DNA of 64,000 bases from Falsigemmobacter intermedius (GTDB lineage Bacteria > Pseudomonadota > Alphaproteobacteria > Rhodobacterales > Rhodobacteraceae). Of this stretch, positions 3,508 through 30,503 are shown piece by piece (within the stretch, counting starts at the first letter, position 1; each line of letters opens with the position of its first letter). The notes below the pieces were generated by a model that ran no database searches, was not told the DNA's origin, and worked only from the letters and a program-made list of their open reading frames with translations. The stretch covers positions 62,001-126,000 of the forward strand of contig NZ_SBLC01000007.1 of assembly GCF_004054105.1 (NCBI RefSeq). Direction: 5' to 3'. The position numbers and the translations under genes are program-made.

Positions 3508-3529
3508 GAGTATTTAAGAAAAGCCAAAG
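3508..3529 (-). repeat. Copy 1 of the TTTGG...AAATACTC intergenic motif
   Basis: The minus strand reads CTTTGGCTTTTCTTAAATAC TC, matching two further copies at 33395 and 59823. It lies in the convergent gap between the SDR and MATE genes and overlaps the left arm of the terminator. Confidence 0.6.
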
Positions 3530-18283: not shown

Positions 18284-19351
18284 ATGACAGGCCGCCGGAT
18301 CCTGCCCCCTGCGGGTCGGTCCGGGGGCCTGCCCTCAGTCAGCCCTGCCGTTGCCCTGCGCCTGCGCGGGCGGCGGCAGTATCTGATCCTGCGCGGCCAG
18401 CGTCGCCGCCTGCGCGATCTGACCGCCCTGGCCGATCGCACCGGCGCCATTGCGCGCGGCGCGATCCTGCTCTTTGCCACTCTGCGCAATGAAGAAAACC
18501 GCCTGCCCTGGTTTCTCGAGCATTACCGCCGCCTCGGCGTCGCGCATTTCCTGATCGTCGCCAACAACTGCACCGATGGCTCCGAGGCCCTGCTGAAAGA
18601 CCAGCCCGATGTCTCGCTCTGGCGGACCACGGCCTCTTATAAGGCCTCGCGCTTTGGCATGGACTGGATGAACGGCCTGCTGGCGCGCTATGGCCATGGC
18701 CATTGGTGCCTGACCGTCGATGCCGATGAGCTGCTGATCTATCCGCATTGGGAAAGCCGCCCCCTGCCCGCGCTGACCGACTGGCTCGACGATCATGCGA
18801 TCCCCGCGCTTGGCACGATGATGCTCGATCTTTACCCCAGGGGGCCCCTGGGGGCTGAGCCTTCCGCACCCGGACAGGACCCGCTGGAGACAATCCCCTG
18901 GTTTGACAGCGGCAATTACACCCGGCGGCGTCAGAAAAATCTGGGCAATCTCTGGATCCAGGGCGGTCCGAGAGCGCGGGCGTTTTTCAGCACTGACCCG
19001 CGCCGTGCGCCGACGCTTGGCAAGGTGCCGCTGGTGCGCTGGCACTGGCGCTATGCCTATGTCAGCTCCACCCATACCCTGCTGCCCCGCCGGCTGAACG
19101 ACCGCGCCGAGACGGAGGGCGGGGAAGACCTCTGCGGCCTGCTGCTGCATACGAAGTTTCTCAGCACCATTGTCGAAAAATCACGCGAAGAAGCGACAAG
19201 AGGAGAGCATTTTGAGAACTCTTCCCTCTATAACGAGTATTACGCCGCGCTCAGCGCGGCACCGCAGCTTTGGACAGAGCAGTCAAAGCGGTATCAGGGC
19301 TGGCGCGGGCTTGAAGCCCTTGGCCTGATGTCGCGTGGCGGCTGGCTCTGA
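18284..19351 (+). CDS. Glycosyltransferase family 2-like protein (tandem paralogue 1)
   Basis: A 355-residue GT-A-fold glycosyltransferase of the group annotated Glyco_tranf_2_4. Conserved blocks are ILLFATLRNEENRLPWFLEH (nucleotide-sugar binding), LIVANNCTDGS, WCLTVDADELLIYP with the acidic metal motif, WFDSGNYTRRR and GNLWIQGGPRARAF. The next gene is a clear paralogue with the same blocks throughout. It starts 3 bp after galU with only a weak ribosome site, so coupling to galU translation is likely. Donor and acceptor sugars are unknown. Confidence 0.87.
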   Translation: MTGRRILPPAGRSGGLPSVSPAVALRLRGRRQYLILRGQRRRLRDLTALADRTGAIARGAILLFATLRNEENRLPWFLEHYRRLGVAHFLIVANNCTDGSEALLKDQPDVSLWRTTASYKASRFGMDWMNGLLARYGHGHWCLTVDADELLIYPHWESRPLPALTDWLDDHAIPALGTMMLDLYPRGPLGAEPSAPGQDPLETIPWFDSGNYTRRRQKNLGNLWIQGGPRARAFFSTDPRRAPTLGKVPLVRWHWRYAYVSSTHTLLPRRLNDRAETEGGEDLCGLLLHTKFLSTIVEKSREEATRGEHFENSSLYNEYYAALSAAPQLWTEQSKRYQGWRGLEALGLMSRGGWL

Positions 19352-19389: not shown

Positions 19390-20400
19390 TTGGGGCTTTG
19401 GCAGTCATATCGTCTGCGCTGGAAGCGGCGGCGCTGGCTCTGGCGGGCAAGGCAGCGCGGGCGCGAACTGCGCAGCCTGCGCGACAGAACTGCCTCCATC
19501 CGTCCCGGGCAGATCCTGCTGTTTTGCTGCCTGCGCAATGAACTGGTGCGGCTGCCGTGGTTTCTGGACTATTACCGCAACCTGGGCGTCAGCCAGTTTC
19601 TGATCGTCGACAACGGCTCAGAGGACGGCTCAGCCGACTACCTCTGCGCCCAGGAGGATGTCTCGCTCTGGCACACCACCGCCTCTTATCGCGGGGCACA
19701 TTATGGCGTGGACTGGATCAACGATCTGCTGCGCCGCTATGGCACCGGGCATTGGTGCCTGACCGTCGATCCCGACGAATTTCTGGTCTATCCCTTCAGC
19801 GACAGCCGCCCGCTGAAGGCGCTGACCGACTGGCTTGAGGCTTCGGGCACCCGCGCTTTTCCGGCGATGTTGCTGGATATGTATCCCAAAGGGCCGATCA
19901 CCGCGCAGCCCTACCGCGCCGGAACGGACCCGCTGGCGATTGCCTGCTGGTTTGACAGCGGCAATTACACCTTCCGCCGCAACCCCGATCTGGGCAATCT
20001 CTGGATCCAGGGCGGCCCGCGCAGCCGGGCGTTCTTTGCCGACAATCCCGCCAAAGCCCCGGCGCTGAACAAGATGCCCCTGGTCCGCTGGCGGCGCGGT
20101 TATGCCTATATCAGCTCCACCCATATGATGCTGCCACGCGGGCTGAATCTCACCTATGACCGCTCAGGCGGAGAGATCATCTCAGGCTGCCTGCTGCATC
20201 CGAAGTTTCTCGACACCCTCACCACCAAGGCCGAAGAAGAGACACAGAGAGGCCAGCATTTCGCCGCAGGGGCCGAGTATCGCGCTTATCTGGAGGGGCT
20301 GCGCGCGCAGCCAGATCTCTGGACCCGCTGGTCAGAGCATTACATCAACTGGCGCCAGCTTGAGATCCTCGGGCTGATGTCGAAAGGCAACTGGACGTGA
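19390..20400 (+). CDS. Glycosyltransferase family 2-like protein (tandem paralogue 2)
   Basis: A 336-residue paralogue of the preceding gene sharing LLFCCLRNELVRLPWFLDYY, LIVDNGSEDGS, WCLTVDPDEFLVYP, WFDSGNYTFRR and GNLWIQGGPRSRAF. In place of DADE it has DPDE at the metal site, as many family members do. The start is TTG at 19390 behind an AGGGGGG ribosome site 7 bp away. It is separated by 38 bp from paralogue 1 and by 4 bp from the next gene. The pair probably arose by tandem duplication and may add successive sugars. Confidence 0.87.
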   Translation: MGLWQSYRLRWKRRRWLWRARQRGRELRSLRDRTASIRPGQILLFCCLRNELVRLPWFLDYYRNLGVSQFLIVDNGSEDGSADYLCAQEDVSLWHTTASYRGAHYGVDWINDLLRRYGTGHWCLTVDPDEFLVYPFSDSRPLKALTDWLEASGTRAFPAMLLDMYPKGPITAQPYRAGTDPLAIACWFDSGNYTFRRNPDLGNLWIQGGPRSRAFFADNPAKAPALNKMPLVRWRRGYAYISSTHMMLPRGLNLTYDRSGGEIISGCLLHPKFLDTLTTKAEEETQRGQHFAAGAEYRAYLEGLRAQPDLWTRWSEHYINWRQLEILGLMSKGNWT

Positions 20401-24449: not shown

Positions 24450-25745
<1,296 letters not shown>

Positions 25746-25764
25746 TTTTCGGATCCTGAAATTG

Positions 25765-25794
25765 AAAAGGCGGCCTTCCGGGGCCGCCTTTTTT
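25765..25794 (+). terminator. Rho-independent terminator of glyA
   Basis: An 11-bp stem AAAAGGCGGCC (25765-25775) / GGCCGCCTTTT (25782-25792) plus a T-run, 20 bp after the stop codon. Confidence 0.92.
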
Positions 25795-25812
25795 CTTGGA
25801 AGGGGGGGAGAG

Positions 25813-25879
25813 GCGCGGGGGCTGCCGCCCCCGCCCCCCGCTCCAGGGGGAGGTTCCCTCCCCCTGGAAACCCCCGAGG
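25813..25879 (+). repeat. 67-bp GC-rich repeat, copy A (inverted partner of 29057-29123)
   Basis: This segment and the reverse complement of 29057-29123 are identical at 65 of 67 positions by direct reading. It contains a hairpin CCAGGGGGAG/CTCCCCCTGG. The two differences change the outer C-G pair of the stem into T-A in the other copy, so pairing is kept. Confidence 0.9.
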
Positions 25880-25898
25880 GTGGCTGCCGCGCGCCGGC

Positions 25899-26264
25899 TC
25901 AGAACGGGCCGCGCAACGTCCAGATCGCAAGAAAAACGCCGCCGAGAACCAGCAACATCAGCGCCACGGTTCCTGCGAAATTCAGTGCCGCAGAGATCAG
26001 GCGTTCTTTTGAGCCCAGCGGGCGAAGATGGCTCATGCAGATCTCATAGGCGGCTTCTGCCCGGGTCTGATTAACCATCATAATCCCTTTGGGATGTCGG
26101 GCGAGCCCCTCGAAGGAGGCCAGCTCCCGGGCCGCACGGCGCACCTTGCGCGGCAGTCTGCGGCCCGCTTTGCGCACCAGAACCGCGAGTGACGGCCCGC
26201 GCACCCTCAGGCGGCTTTCGAGAAGATCGGCCACCCGTGCCGCCATCTGCAATACATCCGCCAT
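25899..26264 (-). CDS. Hypothetical protein with one C-terminal membrane segment
   Basis: About 121 residues from ATG 26264 (MADVLQMAARVADLLESRLR). The first 80 residues are basic and helical (RKAGRRLPRKVRRAARELASFEGLARHPKG), followed by AYEICMSHLRPLG and a hydrophobic helix FAGTVALMLLVLGGVFLAIW near the end. I do not recognise a named family, but the composition and start context look like a real gene. It is divergent from pepN and lies inside the interval bounded by the 67-bp inverted repeats. Function unknown. Confidence 0.65.
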   Translation of the reverse strand: MADVLQMAARVADLLESRLRVRGPSLAVLVRKAGRRLPRKVRRAARELASFEGLARHPKGIMMVNQTRAEAAYEICMSHLRPLGSKERLISAALNFAGTVALMLLVLGGVFLAIWTLRGPF

Positions 26265-26444
26265 AAGCACCCCCGATCGCATCCACACCGCTGCAAAGGG
26301 TAGCGGGGGGCGGGCGGACACTCAAGCCACTCGACCCCGCCGGATGCGCCCGTTACTCTGCCGGACTGTCAGCGCGGCATGCCCTGCCCGCCGCCTCTGA
26401 GTCCTCCCCAAGCCCCTGGCGAATGCCGCCGAAGAAGGTGCCCC

Positions 26445-28994
26445 ATGTCTGAGCCGCAGACCGTCTATCTCGCCGATTACCGTCCTTATCCCTTTGACTT
26501 AGGCGAAGTTGCCCTGACCTTCCGGCTTGCGCCCTCGGCCACGCGGGTGATCTCGCGCTTCACGCTGACCCCGAAGGGACCGGCGGAAGATCTGGTGCTC
26601 TTCGGCGATCATCTGCAGCTGATCCGCGCGACGCTGAACGGCAACCCCGTCACCGCGCGGCCAGAGGGCGGCGTTTTGCGCATTCCCGCTGCCGATCTGC
26701 CCGAAGGCCCCCTCACCTGGGAGGCAGAGGTTGAGATTGATCCCGCCGCCAATACCGCCCTTGAGGGGCTTTATATGTCGAACGGCATGTATTGCACCCA
26801 ATGCGAGGCGGAGGGGTTTCGCCGCATCACCTATTACCCCGACCGGCCCGATGTCATGACCACCTTCCGGGTGCGGATTGAAAGCGATCTGCCGGTGCTT
26901 TTGTCCAACGGCAATCAGGTGGCGTCCGGCCCCGGGTTTGCGGAATGGCATGACCCCTGGCCCAAGCCCGCCTATCTCTTTGCGCTGGTGGCGGGCGATC
27001 TGCGCGCGCGCCCGGGGCAGTTTACCACACTCTCGGGCCGCGATGTGGCGCTGAACATCTGGGTGCGCCCGGGTGATGAGGACCGCTGCGACTGGGCGCT
27101 GACCTCGCTGAAAGCCTCAACGAAATGGGATGAGGAGGTTTACGGGCGCGAATATGACCTCGATATTTTCAACATCGTCGCCGTGGACGATTTCAACATG
27201 GGCGCGATGGAGAATAAGGGGCTGAATATCTTCAACTCCCGCGCGGTTCTGGCACGGCCCGACACCGCGACGGATGCCGATTTTCAGCGCATTGAGGCAA
27301 TCATTGCGCATGAATATTTCCACAACTGGACCGGCAACCGCATCACCTGCCGCGACTGGTTCCAGCTTTGCCTGAAAGAGGGGCTGACGGTCTTTCGCGA
27401 CCAGCAGTTCACCGCCGATCTGCGCGGCGCGGCCGTCAAACGCATTGAGGATGCGCTGACCCTGCGCGACCGGCAGTTCCGCGAGGACAGCGGCCCCCTC
27501 GCGCATCCGGTGCGCCCCTCAAGCTTTGTGGAGATCAACAATTTCTACACCGCCACGGTCTACGAAAAGGGTGCAGAGCTGATCGGCATGCTGAAGCGCC
27601 TTGTGGGTGATGAGGGCTACCGCAAAGCGCTGGATCTTTATTTCACCCGCCACGACGGTCAGGCCTGCACCATTGAGGACTGGCTGAAGGTCTTCGAAGA
27701 GGCCACCGGCCGCGATCTGAGCCAGTTCGCCCGCTGGTATTCCCAGGCCGGAACCCCGCGTGTTGAGGTGACGGAAGACTGGGACGACAGCGGCACCTTC
27801 ACCCTGACCCTGCGCCAGAGCCAGCCGGAAACCCCGGACGGCGTGACGAAACTTCCGCTCCATATCCCGGTGGTGGTGGGGCTTCTCAACCCCAATGGCG
27901 ATGAAGTGCTGCCCTCGGTCACGCTGGAACTGACGCAAGCCGAACAAAGCTTCCGCTTTGACAATCTCACCTCCCGCCCCGTGGCTTCGGTGCTGCGCGA
28001 CTTCTCGGCCCCCGTGATCCTCAGCCACGCCCAAAGCGACGCCACCCGCGCCTTTCTGCTGGCCCATGACACCGACCCCTTCAATCGATGGGAGGCGGGC
28101 CGCACCCTGGCCCGCGCGGTCCTTGCCCGGCTGATCACCGAAGGCACGCCCCCCGGCGCCGACTGGCTGGAGGCCATGGCAGCGCTTCTGCGCGACGACA
28201 GCCTCGACCCGGCCTTCCGGGCGCTTTGCCTGCGCCTGCCGGGAGAAGATGATATGGCCGCAACCCTCGCGGACAGCGGTCACGTGCCCGACCCGGACCG
28301 CATCCACCGCGCGAGGCGGCAGCTTCAGACCAGCCTCGCGCAGCATCTGGCCCCGCAGATCCCGGCCCTGATGACAGCCATGACACCGCAGGGCCCTTAC
28401 AGCCCCGACCCGGTCTCCGCCGGCCAGCGCAGCCTGAAGAACACGCTGCTCGCGCTGCAAAGCCGGCTCGACGGTGGCCGCGCGGCACAGGCGGCTTTCG
28501 CGGCAGCCGATAATATGACCGACCTGACCGCCGCACTCGCCTACCTCATCGAGGCGGGGACCGCCGGGGGGGCGTTGAAAACCTTTGAGGCGCGCTACCG
28601 CGATGACCGGCTGGTGCTCGACAAGTGGTTCATGGCTCAGGTGGTTTACGCCAGCCCCGAAACAGCAGCTCAGGTGGCGGATGCCCTGACCGCGCATCCG
28701 AAGTTTGATCTCAAAAACCCCAACCGCTTCCGGGCGGTCTTTGGGGTGCTGAGCGCAAATCACGCGGGCTTTCACCGGGCAGATGGCACGGGCTATCGCC
28801 TGCTTGCCGACTGGCTTTTGCGCCTTGATGCGCTGAACCCACAGACCGCCGCCCGGATGTCGACAGCCTTTGAAACCTGGCGCCGCTATGACGCCGACCG
28901 CCAAGCCCTGATCCGTCAGGAACTCACTCGTCTGCAACAGGCCCCGAACCTCAGCCGCGATCTCGGAGAGATGGTCACCCGCATGCTCGGCTGA
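26445..28994 (+). CDS. pepN: Aminopeptidase N (M1 metallopeptidase)
   Basis: An 849-residue cytosolic zinc aminopeptidase that trims N-terminal residues from peptides. Visible are the exopeptidase motif GAMEN (253-257) and the zinc site HEYFHNW (289-295) with a second glutamate in LKEGLTVFRDQQF. The DUF3458 Ig-like part (PRVEVTEDW) and the C-terminal helical domain (NLSRDLGEMVTRMLG) complete the E. coli PepN type. ATG 26445 (MSEPQTVYLADY) gives the family start; the earlier in-frame ATG adds a Pro-rich stretch not expected. A hairpin follows its stop. Confidence 0.97.
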   Translation: MSEPQTVYLADYRPYPFDLGEVALTFRLAPSATRVISRFTLTPKGPAEDLVLFGDHLQLIRATLNGNPVTARPEGGVLRIPAADLPEGPLTWEAEVEIDPAANTALEGLYMSNGMYCTQCEAEGFRRITYYPDRPDVMTTFRVRIESDLPVLLSNGNQVASGPGFAEWHDPWPKPAYLFALVAGDLRARPGQFTTLSGRDVALNIWVRPGDEDRCDWALTSLKASTKWDEEVYGREYDLDIFNIVAVDDFNMGAMENKGLNIFNSRAVLARPDTATDADFQRIEAIIAHEYFHNWTGNRITCRDWFQLCLKEGLTVFRDQQFTADLRGAAVKRIEDALTLRDRQFREDSGPLAHPVRPSSFVEINNFYTATVYEKGAELIGMLKRLVGDEGYRKALDLYFTRHDGQACTIEDWLKVFEEATGRDLSQFARWYSQAGTPRVEVTEDWDDSGTFTLTLRQSQPETPDGVTKLPLHIPVVVGLLNPNGDEVLPSVTLELTQAEQSFRFDNLTSRPVASVLRDFSAPVILSHAQSDATRAFLLAHDTDPFNRWEAGRTLARAVLARLITEGTPPGADWLEAMAALLRDDSLDPAFRALCLRLPGEDDMAATLADSGHVPDPDRIHRARRQLQTSLAQHLAPQIPALMTAMTPQGPYSPDPVSAGQRSLKNTLLALQSRLDGGRAAQAAFAAADNMTDLTAALAYLIEAGTAGGALKTFEARYRDDRLVLDKWFMAQVVYASPETAAQVADALTAHPKFDLKNPNRFRAVFGVLSANHAGFHRADGTGYRLLADWLLRLDALNPQTAARMSTAFETWRRYDADRQALIRQELTRLQQAPNLSRDLGEMVTRMLG

Positions 28995-29007
28995 TCCGTA
29001 AAAACAA

Positions 29008-29035
29008 AACCGGCAGCCCCTCAGACCTGCCGGTT
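29008..29035 (+). terminator. Hairpin after pepN
   Basis: AACCGGCAG (29008-29016) pairs with CTGCCGGTT (29027-29035) across a 10-nt loop, 13 bp after the pepN stop. There is no long T-run, so strength is uncertain. Confidence 0.65.
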
Positions 29036-29056
29036 GTCATCCTGTCCCGGAGGCGA

Positions 29057-29123
29057 CCTCGGGGGTTTTCAGGGGGAGGGAACCTCCCCCTGAAGCGGGG
29101 GGCGGGGGCGGCAGCCCCCGCGC
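29057..29123 (-). repeat. 67-bp GC-rich repeat, copy B (inverted partner of 25813-25879)
   Basis: Inverted copy of the repeat after glyA. The hairpin here is TCAGGGGGAGG/CCTCCCCCTGA, with T-A replacing the outer C-G of copy A. It sits in the convergent gap between pepN and hisD, ending 5 bp before the hisD stop codon. Confidence 0.9.
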
Positions 29124-29127
29124 GCCC

Positions 29128-30432
29128 TCACATCTCGTTCAGACGGTCCAGACGCGCGCGCACCGACAGCCCATGCGCCTGCAGCGATTCCGCCTGCGCC
29201 AGCCGCTCAGCTGAGGGACCAATCGCCGCCAGCGCCGCCGGAGTCATCTTCGCCATGGTGGTGCGCTTGACGAAATCCAGAACCGACAGCCCCGACGAAA
29301 ACCGCGCCGAGCGCGCCGTCGGCAGCACATGGTTCGGCCCGCCGATGTAATCGCCGATGGCCTCCGGCGTCCAGGCACCAAGGAAAATCGCCCCTGCATG
29401 GGTGATCTCTCCCGCCAGCGCCTCCGGATCGGCCACACAAAGCTCCAGATGCTCCGGCGCCACACGGTTCGACAGCGCCGCCGCCTCTGCAAGATCCTTC
29501 GTCACGATCACCGCGCCATAATCGCGCCAGCTGGCCCCCGCGATCTCTGCCCGCTCCAGCGTCGGGATCAGCCGCTCCACCGCTGCCGTAACCTCTGCGG
29601 CAAAGCCCGCATCATCGGTCACCAGGATCGACTGCGCCACCTCATCATGCTCCGCCTGGCTCAGCAGATCAAGGGCAAGCCATTCGGGATCATTGTCACG
29701 GTCCGCAATCACCAGAATCTCCGACGGCCCCGCGATCATATCGATGCCCACCTTGCCAAAGACCCGCCGCTTCGCCGCCGCCACAAAGGCATTGCCCGGT
29801 CCGGTGATCTTATCCACCGGACGAATGGTATCGGTGCCGTAAGCCAGGGCCGCCACCGCCTGCGCGCCGCCGATGCGGTAGATCTCATCCACACCCGCGA
29901 TTTCACAGGCAAGGATGACCAGCGGATTAACCACGCCGCCCGGGGTCGGACAGACCACCACCAGCCGCTCAACCCCCGCCACCTTCGCCGGGATCGCATT
30001 CATCAGAACGGACGACGGATAGGCCGCCTTACCGCCCGGCACGTAAAGCCCCGCGGCCGAAACCGGCGTCCAGCGCCAGCCGAGCGTCGCGCCCGCCGCA
30101 TCCGTCCAGGAGGCATCTTCGGGCATCTGCCGCGCATGATAGGCCCGGATCCGCTCGGCTGCCAGTTCCAGCGCCGCGCGATCCTCAGGGGTGACCAGCG
30201 CCACCGCCGCCTCAATCTCCGCCCGCGAAAAGGCCAGCGTCTCCGGCGTCAGCTCCAGACGGTCAAATTTCGACGTCAGCTCAATCACCGCCGCGTCGCC
30301 GCGCTCGCGCACATCAGCGATGATCGCGGCCACCGCCGCATCCACATCCGGCGCATCCTCGCGCTTCATCGAGAGCAGATGCTCAAAGCGCGCGGCGAAA
30401 TCCGGGTCGGTCGTGGTCAGATGTTGCGGCAT
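29128..30432 (-). CDS. hisD: Histidinol dehydrogenase
   Basis: A 434-residue zinc enzyme for the last two oxidation steps of histidine synthesis (histidinol to histidine). It has the family length and blocks: VSAAGLYVPGGKAAYPSSVL, IAGPSEILVIAD, LLSQAEHDEVAQS, the catalytic VAPEHLEL region and NHVLPTARSARFSSGLSVLDF. ATG 30432 (MPQHLTTTD) is chosen as the family start. In many Rhodobacteraceae hisD is followed by the UPF0262 and phosphatase genes, but here those lie about 11 kb away at 41497. Confidence 0.97.
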   Translation of the reverse strand: MPQHLTTTDPDFAARFEHLLSMKREDAPDVDAAVAAIIADVRERGDAAVIELTSKFDRLELTPETLAFSRAEIEAAVALVTPEDRAALELAAERIRAYHARQMPEDASWTDAAGATLGWRWTPVSAAGLYVPGGKAAYPSSVLMNAIPAKVAGVERLVVVCPTPGGVVNPLVILACEIAGVDEIYRIGGAQAVAALAYGTDTIRPVDKITGPGNAFVAAAKRRVFGKVGIDMIAGPSEILVIADRDNDPEWLALDLLSQAEHDEVAQSILVTDDAGFAAEVTAAVERLIPTLERAEIAGASWRDYGAVIVTKDLAEAAALSNRVAPEHLELCVADPEALAGEITHAGAIFLGAWTPEAIGDYIGGPNHVLPTARSARFSSGLSVLDFVKRTTMAKMTPAALAAIGPSAERLAQAESLQAHGLSVRARLDRLNEM

Positions 30433-30503
30433 GCGAAGGCCCCCTTTGTGGCATGGCGCGGTGGTAACGCCCCCCGCCGCCCCGCGCAAGCCGCCGCCGC
30501 CGC

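What the first reader, a model, noticed from the sequence alone, without database searches (positions are those of the whole stretch)
25813..29123. 67-bp inverted repeat pair with a compensatory base change, bracketing pepN
Copies at 25813-25879 and 29057-29123 are inverted and match at 65 of 67 bases. The only two differences convert the outer C-G pair of a long hairpin into T-A, preserving the stem. That pattern suggests selection on structure or hairpin-templated correction. The interval contains a hypothetical gene and pepN, so recombination between copies could flip 3.2 kb.
Basis: seen in the sequence. Interest (0 to 1): 0.6.

Follow-up and report, generated by a model that had tools for sequence, protein, structure and literature searches.

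The report
Hairpin repeats at bacterial gene ends
The inverted pair is two copies of a widespread repeat that sits near the ends of genes in this bacterial family; its arms change together across species, and a third stretch beside them seems to change with them, hinting at a three-stranded DNA fold rather than a switch that flips genes.

Summary
In detail: 25813-25879(+) and 29057-29123(-) match at 65 of 67 bases. The two differences are one base pair (25843-25867) of a hairpin inside each copy. The sister species has T-A at both sites, so the window's C-G is derived. The pair is not isolated: a covariance model finds 76 copies in five genus genomes. Stems pair in 99.2% of cells, with 180 double-changed cells and one G-U. 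Most copies lie within some 15 nt of a stop codon, in convergent or tandem gaps (64 of 68). glyA-hyp-pepN orientation is the same in 5 of 5 genomes, so a flip has no support. New here: the C-run after a hairpin follows the purine arm as a third strand would (C opposite G, A or T opposite A; 13 full-length matches of 34, reversed order 0). That is the code of known intrastrand-triplex (PIT/TM) motifs, here in class III/I order and at gene 3' ends. Many family genomes carry dozens of [AG][AG]TATTT tails with a genome-specific tag. Structure-keeping evolution is well supported; triplex formation and 3'-end function are inferred; hairpin-templated correction is neither shown nor excluded.

The parts
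25813..25879 (+). EL1: copy 1 of the element, between glyA(+) and a convergent unannotated gene(-); 67 nt after the glyA stop codon, 19 nt before the other stop codon
   Evidence: model match 64.7 bits at 25815-25878; sister orthologue differs only at the one pair; ORF ends
25815..25834 (+). EL1 hairpin 1: 8 bp, TGCC loop
   Evidence: fold
25835..25841 (+). EL1 C-run after hairpin 1 (possible third strand; the A linker common in the family is missing in EL1 and EL2)
   Evidence: sequence; family copies
25842..25868 (+). EL1 hairpin 2: 12 bp, TTC loop; derived C-G pair at 25843-25867
25869..25879 (+). EL1 C-run after hairpin 2 (possible third strand: 6 of 9 positions fit the purine arm)
29057..29123 (-). 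EL2: copy 2, between pepN(+) and hisD(-); begins 4 nt after the hisD stop codon; identical to both sister-species copies
29102..29121 (-). EL2 hairpin 1
29068..29094 (-). EL2 hairpin 2, ancestral T-A pair at 29093-29069
25766..25794 (+). U-tract terminator-like hairpin after glyA, upstream of EL1
   Evidence: found by my script; the scan tool did not list it
24450..25745 (+). glyA (serine hydroxymethyltransferase)
   Evidence: PF00464
25899..26321 (-). gene of unknown function, no Pfam family at E 0.001; conserved in the 5 genus genomes
26379..28994 (+). pepN (M1 aminopeptidase)
29128..30489 (-). hisD (histidinol dehydrogenase)
   Evidence: PF00815
33395..33454 (-). related one-hairpin element in the same window: CCGGGGAGGG hairpin, ACCCCGCCC run, then the genome's tail AGTATTT-N4-AAAGCCAAAG

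Best explanation
EL1 and EL2 are two copies of a dispersed 3'-flanking structural element of the Rhodobacteraceae. SHOWN: each copy is two G+C-rich hairpins, each followed by a C-run; most copies sit a few bases after a stop codon, often filling the gap between two convergent genes, and many positions are kept between species; stems change in lockstep; in the sample the C-run follows the purine arm in parallel order (C opposite G, A or T opposite A). INFERRED: the element is kept as a DNA structure as much as an RNA one. When single-stranded, one strand can fold into an intrastrand triplex hairpin (class III read along the element, purine-motif class I on the other strand), while the transcript of a flanking gene ends in stable hairpins. 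Its job would be that of a two-sided gene-end boundary: ending or protecting mRNA 3' ends and stopping convergent transcription. The T-A to C-G change is an ordinary compensatory replacement in this lineage. The two copies are near-identical because one was copied from, or converted by, the other before the two Falsigemmobacter species split.
For: Family of 76 copies in five genomes. Covariation: 16 of 19 pairs, 180 cells, 0 of 500 shuffles (the set includes the 8 seeds); repeated on 46 distinct rows from loci outside the five genus genomes, none of them seeds: 15 of 19 pairs, 128 cells (a few rows are Clostridia or Roseococcus matches). Context: 32 convergent, 32 tandem, 4 divergent of the 68 of 76 with both neighbours called, against 31, 111, 61 for background gaps of 70-400 nt on two Falsigemmobacter contigs, p = 2.4e-8. 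All 8 own copies have a G004 orthologue, 6 of 8 also one in Gemmobacter by at least one flank. Stem pairs changed between G000 and G004: 3 of 163 in the 8 element pairs, 27 of 214 in 22 U-tract terminators, p = 7e-5. Third strand: 13 of 34 unique full-length parallel matches against 0 reversed, 0 of 5000 permutations; odds ratio 12.5 parallel, 0.52 reversed over 87 unique cases; hairpin 2 of the genus set fits better in parallel in 68 of 72 scored, better reversed in 1. The 19-nt core of hairpin 2 occurs without mismatch only at EL1 and EL2 in this genome.
Against: No transcription, termination or triplex was measured. EL1 and EL2 have no U-tract and lack the tail; glyA already has a U-tract hairpin before EL1, which lies 67 nt after its stop codon. 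Most asymmetric cases (74 of 87) fit the third-strand code only partly: opposite A there are also 53 C and 16 G; EL1/EL2 fit at 6 of 9; in 4 of 43 cases with a C-rich follower the reversed order scored better. The sample is the loci that I held, mostly fetched for the element or its tail, and copies are related, so counts are not independent. Class III (C+.G-C) triplexes favour acid, and purine-motif triplexes are reported not to form in RNA (PMC4666352), so a triplex in the transcript is doubtful. Published PIT elements showed no terminator activity (PMC4666352, section 3 and a passage of section 20).
Confidence: 0.5

Rival explanations
1. Ordinary RNA-level 3' hairpins (intrinsic-terminator-like or exonuclease-blocking), with selection only on transcript folding; the C-runs are composition.
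For: Most copies a few bases after a stop codon in sense, strong folding, precedent for compensatory evolution of terminators (PMC5381666, abstract and passages read).
Against: G-U pairs are 1 of 1381 stem cells here against 15 of 284 in U-tract terminators of one contig of this genome, picked by a rule that allows G-U, and 4.98% in B. cereus terminators (PMC5381666); at 20 of the 21 sense-tandem copies still 1 of 376. No U-tract. It does not explain the parallel-order match of the C-run.
Confidence: 0.25
2. Hairpin-templated correction: template switching during replication keeps the palindromes perfect, with or without a function.
For: Double changes outnumber single ones at orthologous sites (111 double, 11 single, 1 other; ordinary terminators 2 double, 23 single, 2 other); G-U nearly absent; published as a mechanism that maintains hairpins (PMC8794818, abstract and passages read).
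Against: At the closest distance (G000-G004) single changes exist: 2 single, 1 double. I see no way for it to produce the parallel-order third run. At larger distances whole-element replacement by a paralogue also gives double changes.
Confidence: 0.15
3. REP-like mobile repeats spread by a REP-associated transposase (RAYT).
For: Dispersed, extragenic, palindromic, copy numbers differ between species (8 to 32); tails resemble within-genome copies in G003.
Against: No Y1_Tnp (PF01797) match in G000, G001, G003, G004 although G001 has most copies; G002 has one. Many positions are kept between species. By eye no terminal repeats or target-site duplication flank EL1/EL2 (no formal test).
Confidence: 0.07
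4. An inverted-repeat switch that flips the 3.2-kb hyp-pepN segment.
For: Two 67-nt inverted copies 3.2 kb apart. The orientation of neighbouring hisD does differ between clades.
Against: Inner orientation is the same in 5 of 5 genomes; pepN is a housekeeping-type peptidase.
Confidence: 0.02

Closest known systems
Intrastrand triplex motifs: PIT elements / BoxC / TM-ECO (Holder et al. 2015, PMC4666352; Hoyne et al. and Maher et al. as cited there)
   Same: G+C-rich, dispersed, intergenic; three runs (purine, pyrimidine, third) in one strand with G.G-C and A/T.A-T coding; inverted pairs of copies occur.
   Different: TM-ECO is class II (pyrimidine-purine-third); here the order is purine-pyrimidine-third (class III, with class I on the other strand). 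In E. coli TM-ECO shows no specific distance to genes and is more often upstream; most copies here sit at short distances after stop codons. Many family elements carry a TATTT tail with a genome tag.
REP / BIME palindromes (from general knowledge)
   Same: Short extragenic palindromes, many copies, often 3' of genes.
   Different: No RAYT transposase match in this genome; conserved positions.
Intrinsic, including bidirectional, terminators (B. cereus study PMC5381666)
   Same: Compensatory stem changes, convergent genes.
   Different: No U-tract, two hairpins, almost no G-U pairs, added C-runs.

Membership tests
Intrastrand triplex motif (PIT/TM kind) | three tracts in one strand whose letters fit G.G-C and A(T).A-T triplets in the right orientation | tested here: met
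   for the wider set: parallel order 13 full matches of 34, reversed 0; odds ratio 12.5 against 0.52. EL1/EL2 themselves fit only partly: 6 of 9 at hairpin 2
Intrastrand triplex motif (PIT/TM kind) | isolated strand forms a triplex in solution | not testable with these tools
   needs CD, NMR or DMS footprint
TM-ECO (BoxC) specifically | class II pattern CCCTCNCCC-N3-6-GGGNGAGGG-N3-GGGNGAGGG | tested here: not met
   by comparison of the EL1/EL2 sequence with the pattern printed in PMC4666352 section 16: order and letters differ; the pattern was not searched in the genome
REP/RAYT | genome carries a Y1 REP-associated transposase | tested here: not met
   PF01797: 0 matches in G000; the control genomes of the same search include E. 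coli, where it rings
Intrinsic terminator | hairpin followed by a U-tract | tested here: not met
   sequence; the scan lists no terminator-like site at EL1 or EL2, though it also misses the glyA U-tract hairpin
Known Rfam family | match over a gathering score | tested here: not met
   7 matches up to E 5 in 25000-30000, all below gathering
Invertible switch | both orientations exist | tested here: not met
   same orientation in 5 of 5 genomes; reads not available

The most novel reading that the evidence does not exclude
Rhodobacteraceae mark many gene ends with hairpins that are kept as intrastrand DNA triplexes: a third run evolves together with both arms (three-way covariation), G-U wobble is not tolerated because DNA rather than RNA is selected, and a TATTT tail carries a genome-specific tag that is homogenised among copies, as if read by a co-evolving factor.
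Probability: 0.3. Interest if true: 0.8.

Novelty: new variant of a known kind. Interest (0 to 1): 0.55.

Why it matters
Intrastrand triplex motifs in bacteria have been counted, shown to fold in vitro and linked to genome instability (PMC4666352), but no role at genes is established there. A family with many copies per genome, placed after genes, whose third run varies with the arms, makes the question testable by comparative counts and by swapping single letters. It also gives a natural set in which selection on DNA, selection on RNA and template-switch repair of palindromes predict different pair types.

Tried and rejected
Inverted repeat as a switch: rejected, orientation is the same in 5 of 5 genomes. 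RAYT-driven REP: rejected for this genome. Rfam family: none over gathering in 25000-30000. Plasmids or phages as carriers: two matches, both on Paracoccus plasmids of over 800 kb, and no phage match. Pairing of the third run with the purine arm by ordinary antiparallel Watson-Crick pairs: rejected, reversed-order full matches 0; with T alone allowed opposite A the first count was 11 full parallel, 0 reversed of 73, with 33 better parallel and 8 better reversed. hisD inversion through element copies: G002 has inverted copies on both sides of hisD plus a second gene (I call it an aminotransferase from reading the protein, no family search), but no close match of it is in G000 (best match 36% identity) and the order of events could not be worked out. 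The family-wide scan with the covariance model found 2 of 149 genomes (this one and one other), but its first look scored at most 34 candidates per genome, so it is no measure of absence. First alignments A1, A3 and A4 were partly out of register and not used for counts; A2 served only for a first consensus fold. The pooled terminator control was too loose (100 of 826 cells were mismatches other than G-U or A-C) and was replaced. Concerted evolution of tails: clear in G003 (5 of 6 orthologous tails less like their G001 orthologue than like their paralogues, 1 tie), not in G001, which has several tail types.
Full report
What is there. At minimum length 30 the window holds one inverted pair: 25813-25879 and 29057-29123, 65 of 67 bases. 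Each copy is itself two hairpins: GCGGGGGC-TGCC-GCCCCCGC, a C-run, then a 12-bp hairpin with a TTC loop, then AACCCCCGAGG. The two differences are the two sides of one pair of hairpin 2. EL1 lies between glyA(+) and an unannotated gene(-), EL2 between pepN(+) and hisD(-). Both gaps are convergent. EL2 begins 4 nt after the hisD stop codon. EL1 begins 67 nt after the glyA stop codon, behind a U-tract hairpin, and ends 19 nt before the stop codon of the other gene.

Where the change happened. The genome G004 has both copies at the same places, in a region 86.7% identical to the window. Both G004 copies equal EL2, so EL1 carries the derived C-G pair. The copies are 97 and 100% identical between the species, while intergenic stretches of the region are 73% (before EL1), 95% (the 19 nt after EL1), 65% (hyp-pepN) and 67% (pepN-EL2). 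Contig lengths suggest that G004 is Falsigemmobacter faecalis, G001 Gemmobacter nectariphilus, G003 G. megaterium and G002 a Gemmobacter MAG (my inference).

A family, not a pair. BLAST with the 67 bases hits 8 of 41 genomes, of which 5 are the genus genomes and 3 give only 21-35 nt matches. A covariance model from 8 copies finds 8, 32, 17, 11 and 8 copies in G000-G004 and none in 20 other genomes at E <= 0.01; at most 150 candidates per genome were scored. In named genomes the same architecture occurs in Stagnihabitans, Rhodobacter, Pararhodobacter, Natronohydrobacter, Pseudorhodobacter and Paracoccus.

Covariation. On 74 distinct rows, seeds included, 99.2% of 1381 stem cells pair, 16 of 19 pairs have a change on both sides (180 cells), 0 of 500 shuffles reach this, and sliding the partners by 1-3 columns destroys it. 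On 46 distinct rows from loci outside the five genus genomes the figures are 98.9%, 15 of 19 and 128 cells, with three wobble cells. The alignments were fitted to the structure. Cells that are not Watson-Crick in the genus set are 7 A-C, 2 G-A, 1 C-C, 1 G-G and 1 G-U.

Comparison with ordinary terminators. My script found 27 U-tract terminator-like hairpins on G000:C119; 22 could be mapped to G004: 187 pairs same, 23 changed on one side (8 of them G-U), 2 changed on both sides and paired, 2 changed on both sides otherwise, 10 gaps; G-U is 15 of 284 pairs in the 27. The 8 element pairs of the same two genomes have 160 same, 1 double, 2 single (one G-U, one A-C), 2 gaps; 3 of 163 against 27 of 214, p = 7e-5. 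Over 39 cross-genome site pairs, which overlap and are not independent, 111 double, 11 single and 1 other change stand against 600 unchanged and 18 gaps. At larger distance this may partly be replacement by a paralogue, and partly the fitted alignment. In B. cereus terminators most changed pairs are one-sided and G-U is 4.98% of pairs (PMC5381666, abstract and passages read). Template switching is a published way to keep hairpins perfect (PMC8794818, abstract and passages read).

Context. With a simple codon-score gene caller of my own, 68 of 76 copies have both neighbours: 32 convergent, 32 tandem (21 in sense, 11 in antisense), 4 divergent. Gaps of 70-400 nt on two Falsigemmobacter contigs give 31, 111 and 61; the copies come from five genomes, the background from two. 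Where a gene ends upstream in sense, hairpin 1 mostly starts 2-15 nt after its stop codon, and the other end is often 20-30 nt from an opposing stop codon.

The third run. After each hairpin comes a C-run. In many copies where the purine arm has an A inside, the run has A or T at the parallel position. Examples: GGGAGG then CCCTCC in this very genome, GAAGGGG then CTTCCCC, GAGAGGGG then CTCTCCCC, GGGGAGGG then CCCCTCCC in Roseococcus. For runs with an inner A followed by a C-rich stretch, 13 of 34 unique cases (18 of 43 before removing repeats) match in full in parallel order and 0 in reversed order; permuting the followers gives a mean of 5.1 and a maximum of 11 in 5000. With a fixed 1-nt linker, over 87 unique cases, opposite A are 124 A/T, 53 C, 16 G; opposite G are 62 A/T, 378 C, 53 G (odds ratio 12.5; reversed 0.52); full matches 13 against 0; same-length permutation mean 3.2, maximum 12 in 5000. 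In the genus set hairpin 2 fits better in parallel in 68 of 72 copies scored, worse in 1, equal in 3. A or T opposite A is the code of the purine motif on the other strand (G.G-C, A/T.A-T). In the scheme of PMC4666352 this is class III along the element and class I on the complement. Of that paper I read the abstract, part 1 of 2 of section 3, sections 10, 15, 16 and 18, and passages.

The tail. GRTATTT-N5-MAGRYRAAR occurs 352 times in G001 and 77 in G003, and 0 times in G000, G002 and G004, with 0 for the reversed pattern. A wider form occurs at least once in 108 of 149 family genomes, one per genus; 53 have 20 or more by my count of the table, while one match alone is at chance level; reversed controls are 0-4. 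In the ten genomes with many listed sites the letters after N5 are fixed or fall into a few types. Many tails follow a hairpin plus C-run, but a good part do not show one. In this genome and G004 the form is RGTATTT-N4-AAAGCCAAAR, 66 and 77 copies, control 0; EL1 and EL2 lack it. By my gene caller all 70 tails on G001:C1 are intergenic and 61 of 70 have a gene 3' end as a neighbour; on G000:C119 11 of 11 do.

Flip. Orientation and order of glyA, hyp and pepN are the same in all five genomes, with an extra gene between glyA and hyp in G001 and G003. hisD is reversed in G002 and G003 relative to G000 and G004 and lies elsewhere in G001; an element next to pepN is kept in four of five genomes. 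A role of the elements in that change is possible but not shown.

Literature. Searches for REP or intergenic repeats in Rhodobacter, Rhodobacteraceae, Paracoccus and Gemmobacter and for triplex motifs with Rhodobacter showed no title or abstract start that describes this family; I did not open those papers apart from PMC4666352, and the library is open-access only. PMC4666352 does not contain the words Rhodobacter, Paracoccus, Roseobacter or alphaproteobacteria in its held main text; its database was not searched.

Noticed in passing
G001:C1 (70 sites), G003, G000, G004 and others: A TATTT-N4/5-tag tail with a genome-specific tag lies at gene 3' ends across the family (53 of 149 genomes hold 20 or more matches); some genomes carry two or more tag types.
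   Followed up: partly
window 29128-30489 and L046, L047: hisD is inverted between Falsigemmobacter and Gemmobacter G002/G003 at the side that abuts EL2; G002 has inverted element copies on both sides of hisD plus a second gene without a close match in this genome.
   Followed up: partly
L078, L098, L111 (Clostridia MAG contigs): Unrelated repeats such as GGGGGAAAA hairpins followed by CCCCTTTT largely fit the third-strand code too (7 of 9, 7 of 8, 8 of 9 in the best cases).
   Followed up: no
window 3509-3529: A tail AGTATTTAAGAAAAGCCAAAG stands without a clear hairpin before it, some 20 nt after a possible stop codon (frame not checked).
   Followed up: no
window 19007-19098 and 20056-20147: A 92-nt direct repeat at 78% identity, 1049 nt apart; whether it is coding was not checked.
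   Followed up: no
L179, L180, L163: In a few copies the upstream reading frame, by my gene caller, runs into the element and ends at a TGA inside hairpin 2, so the element may supply the stop codon.
   Followed up: no
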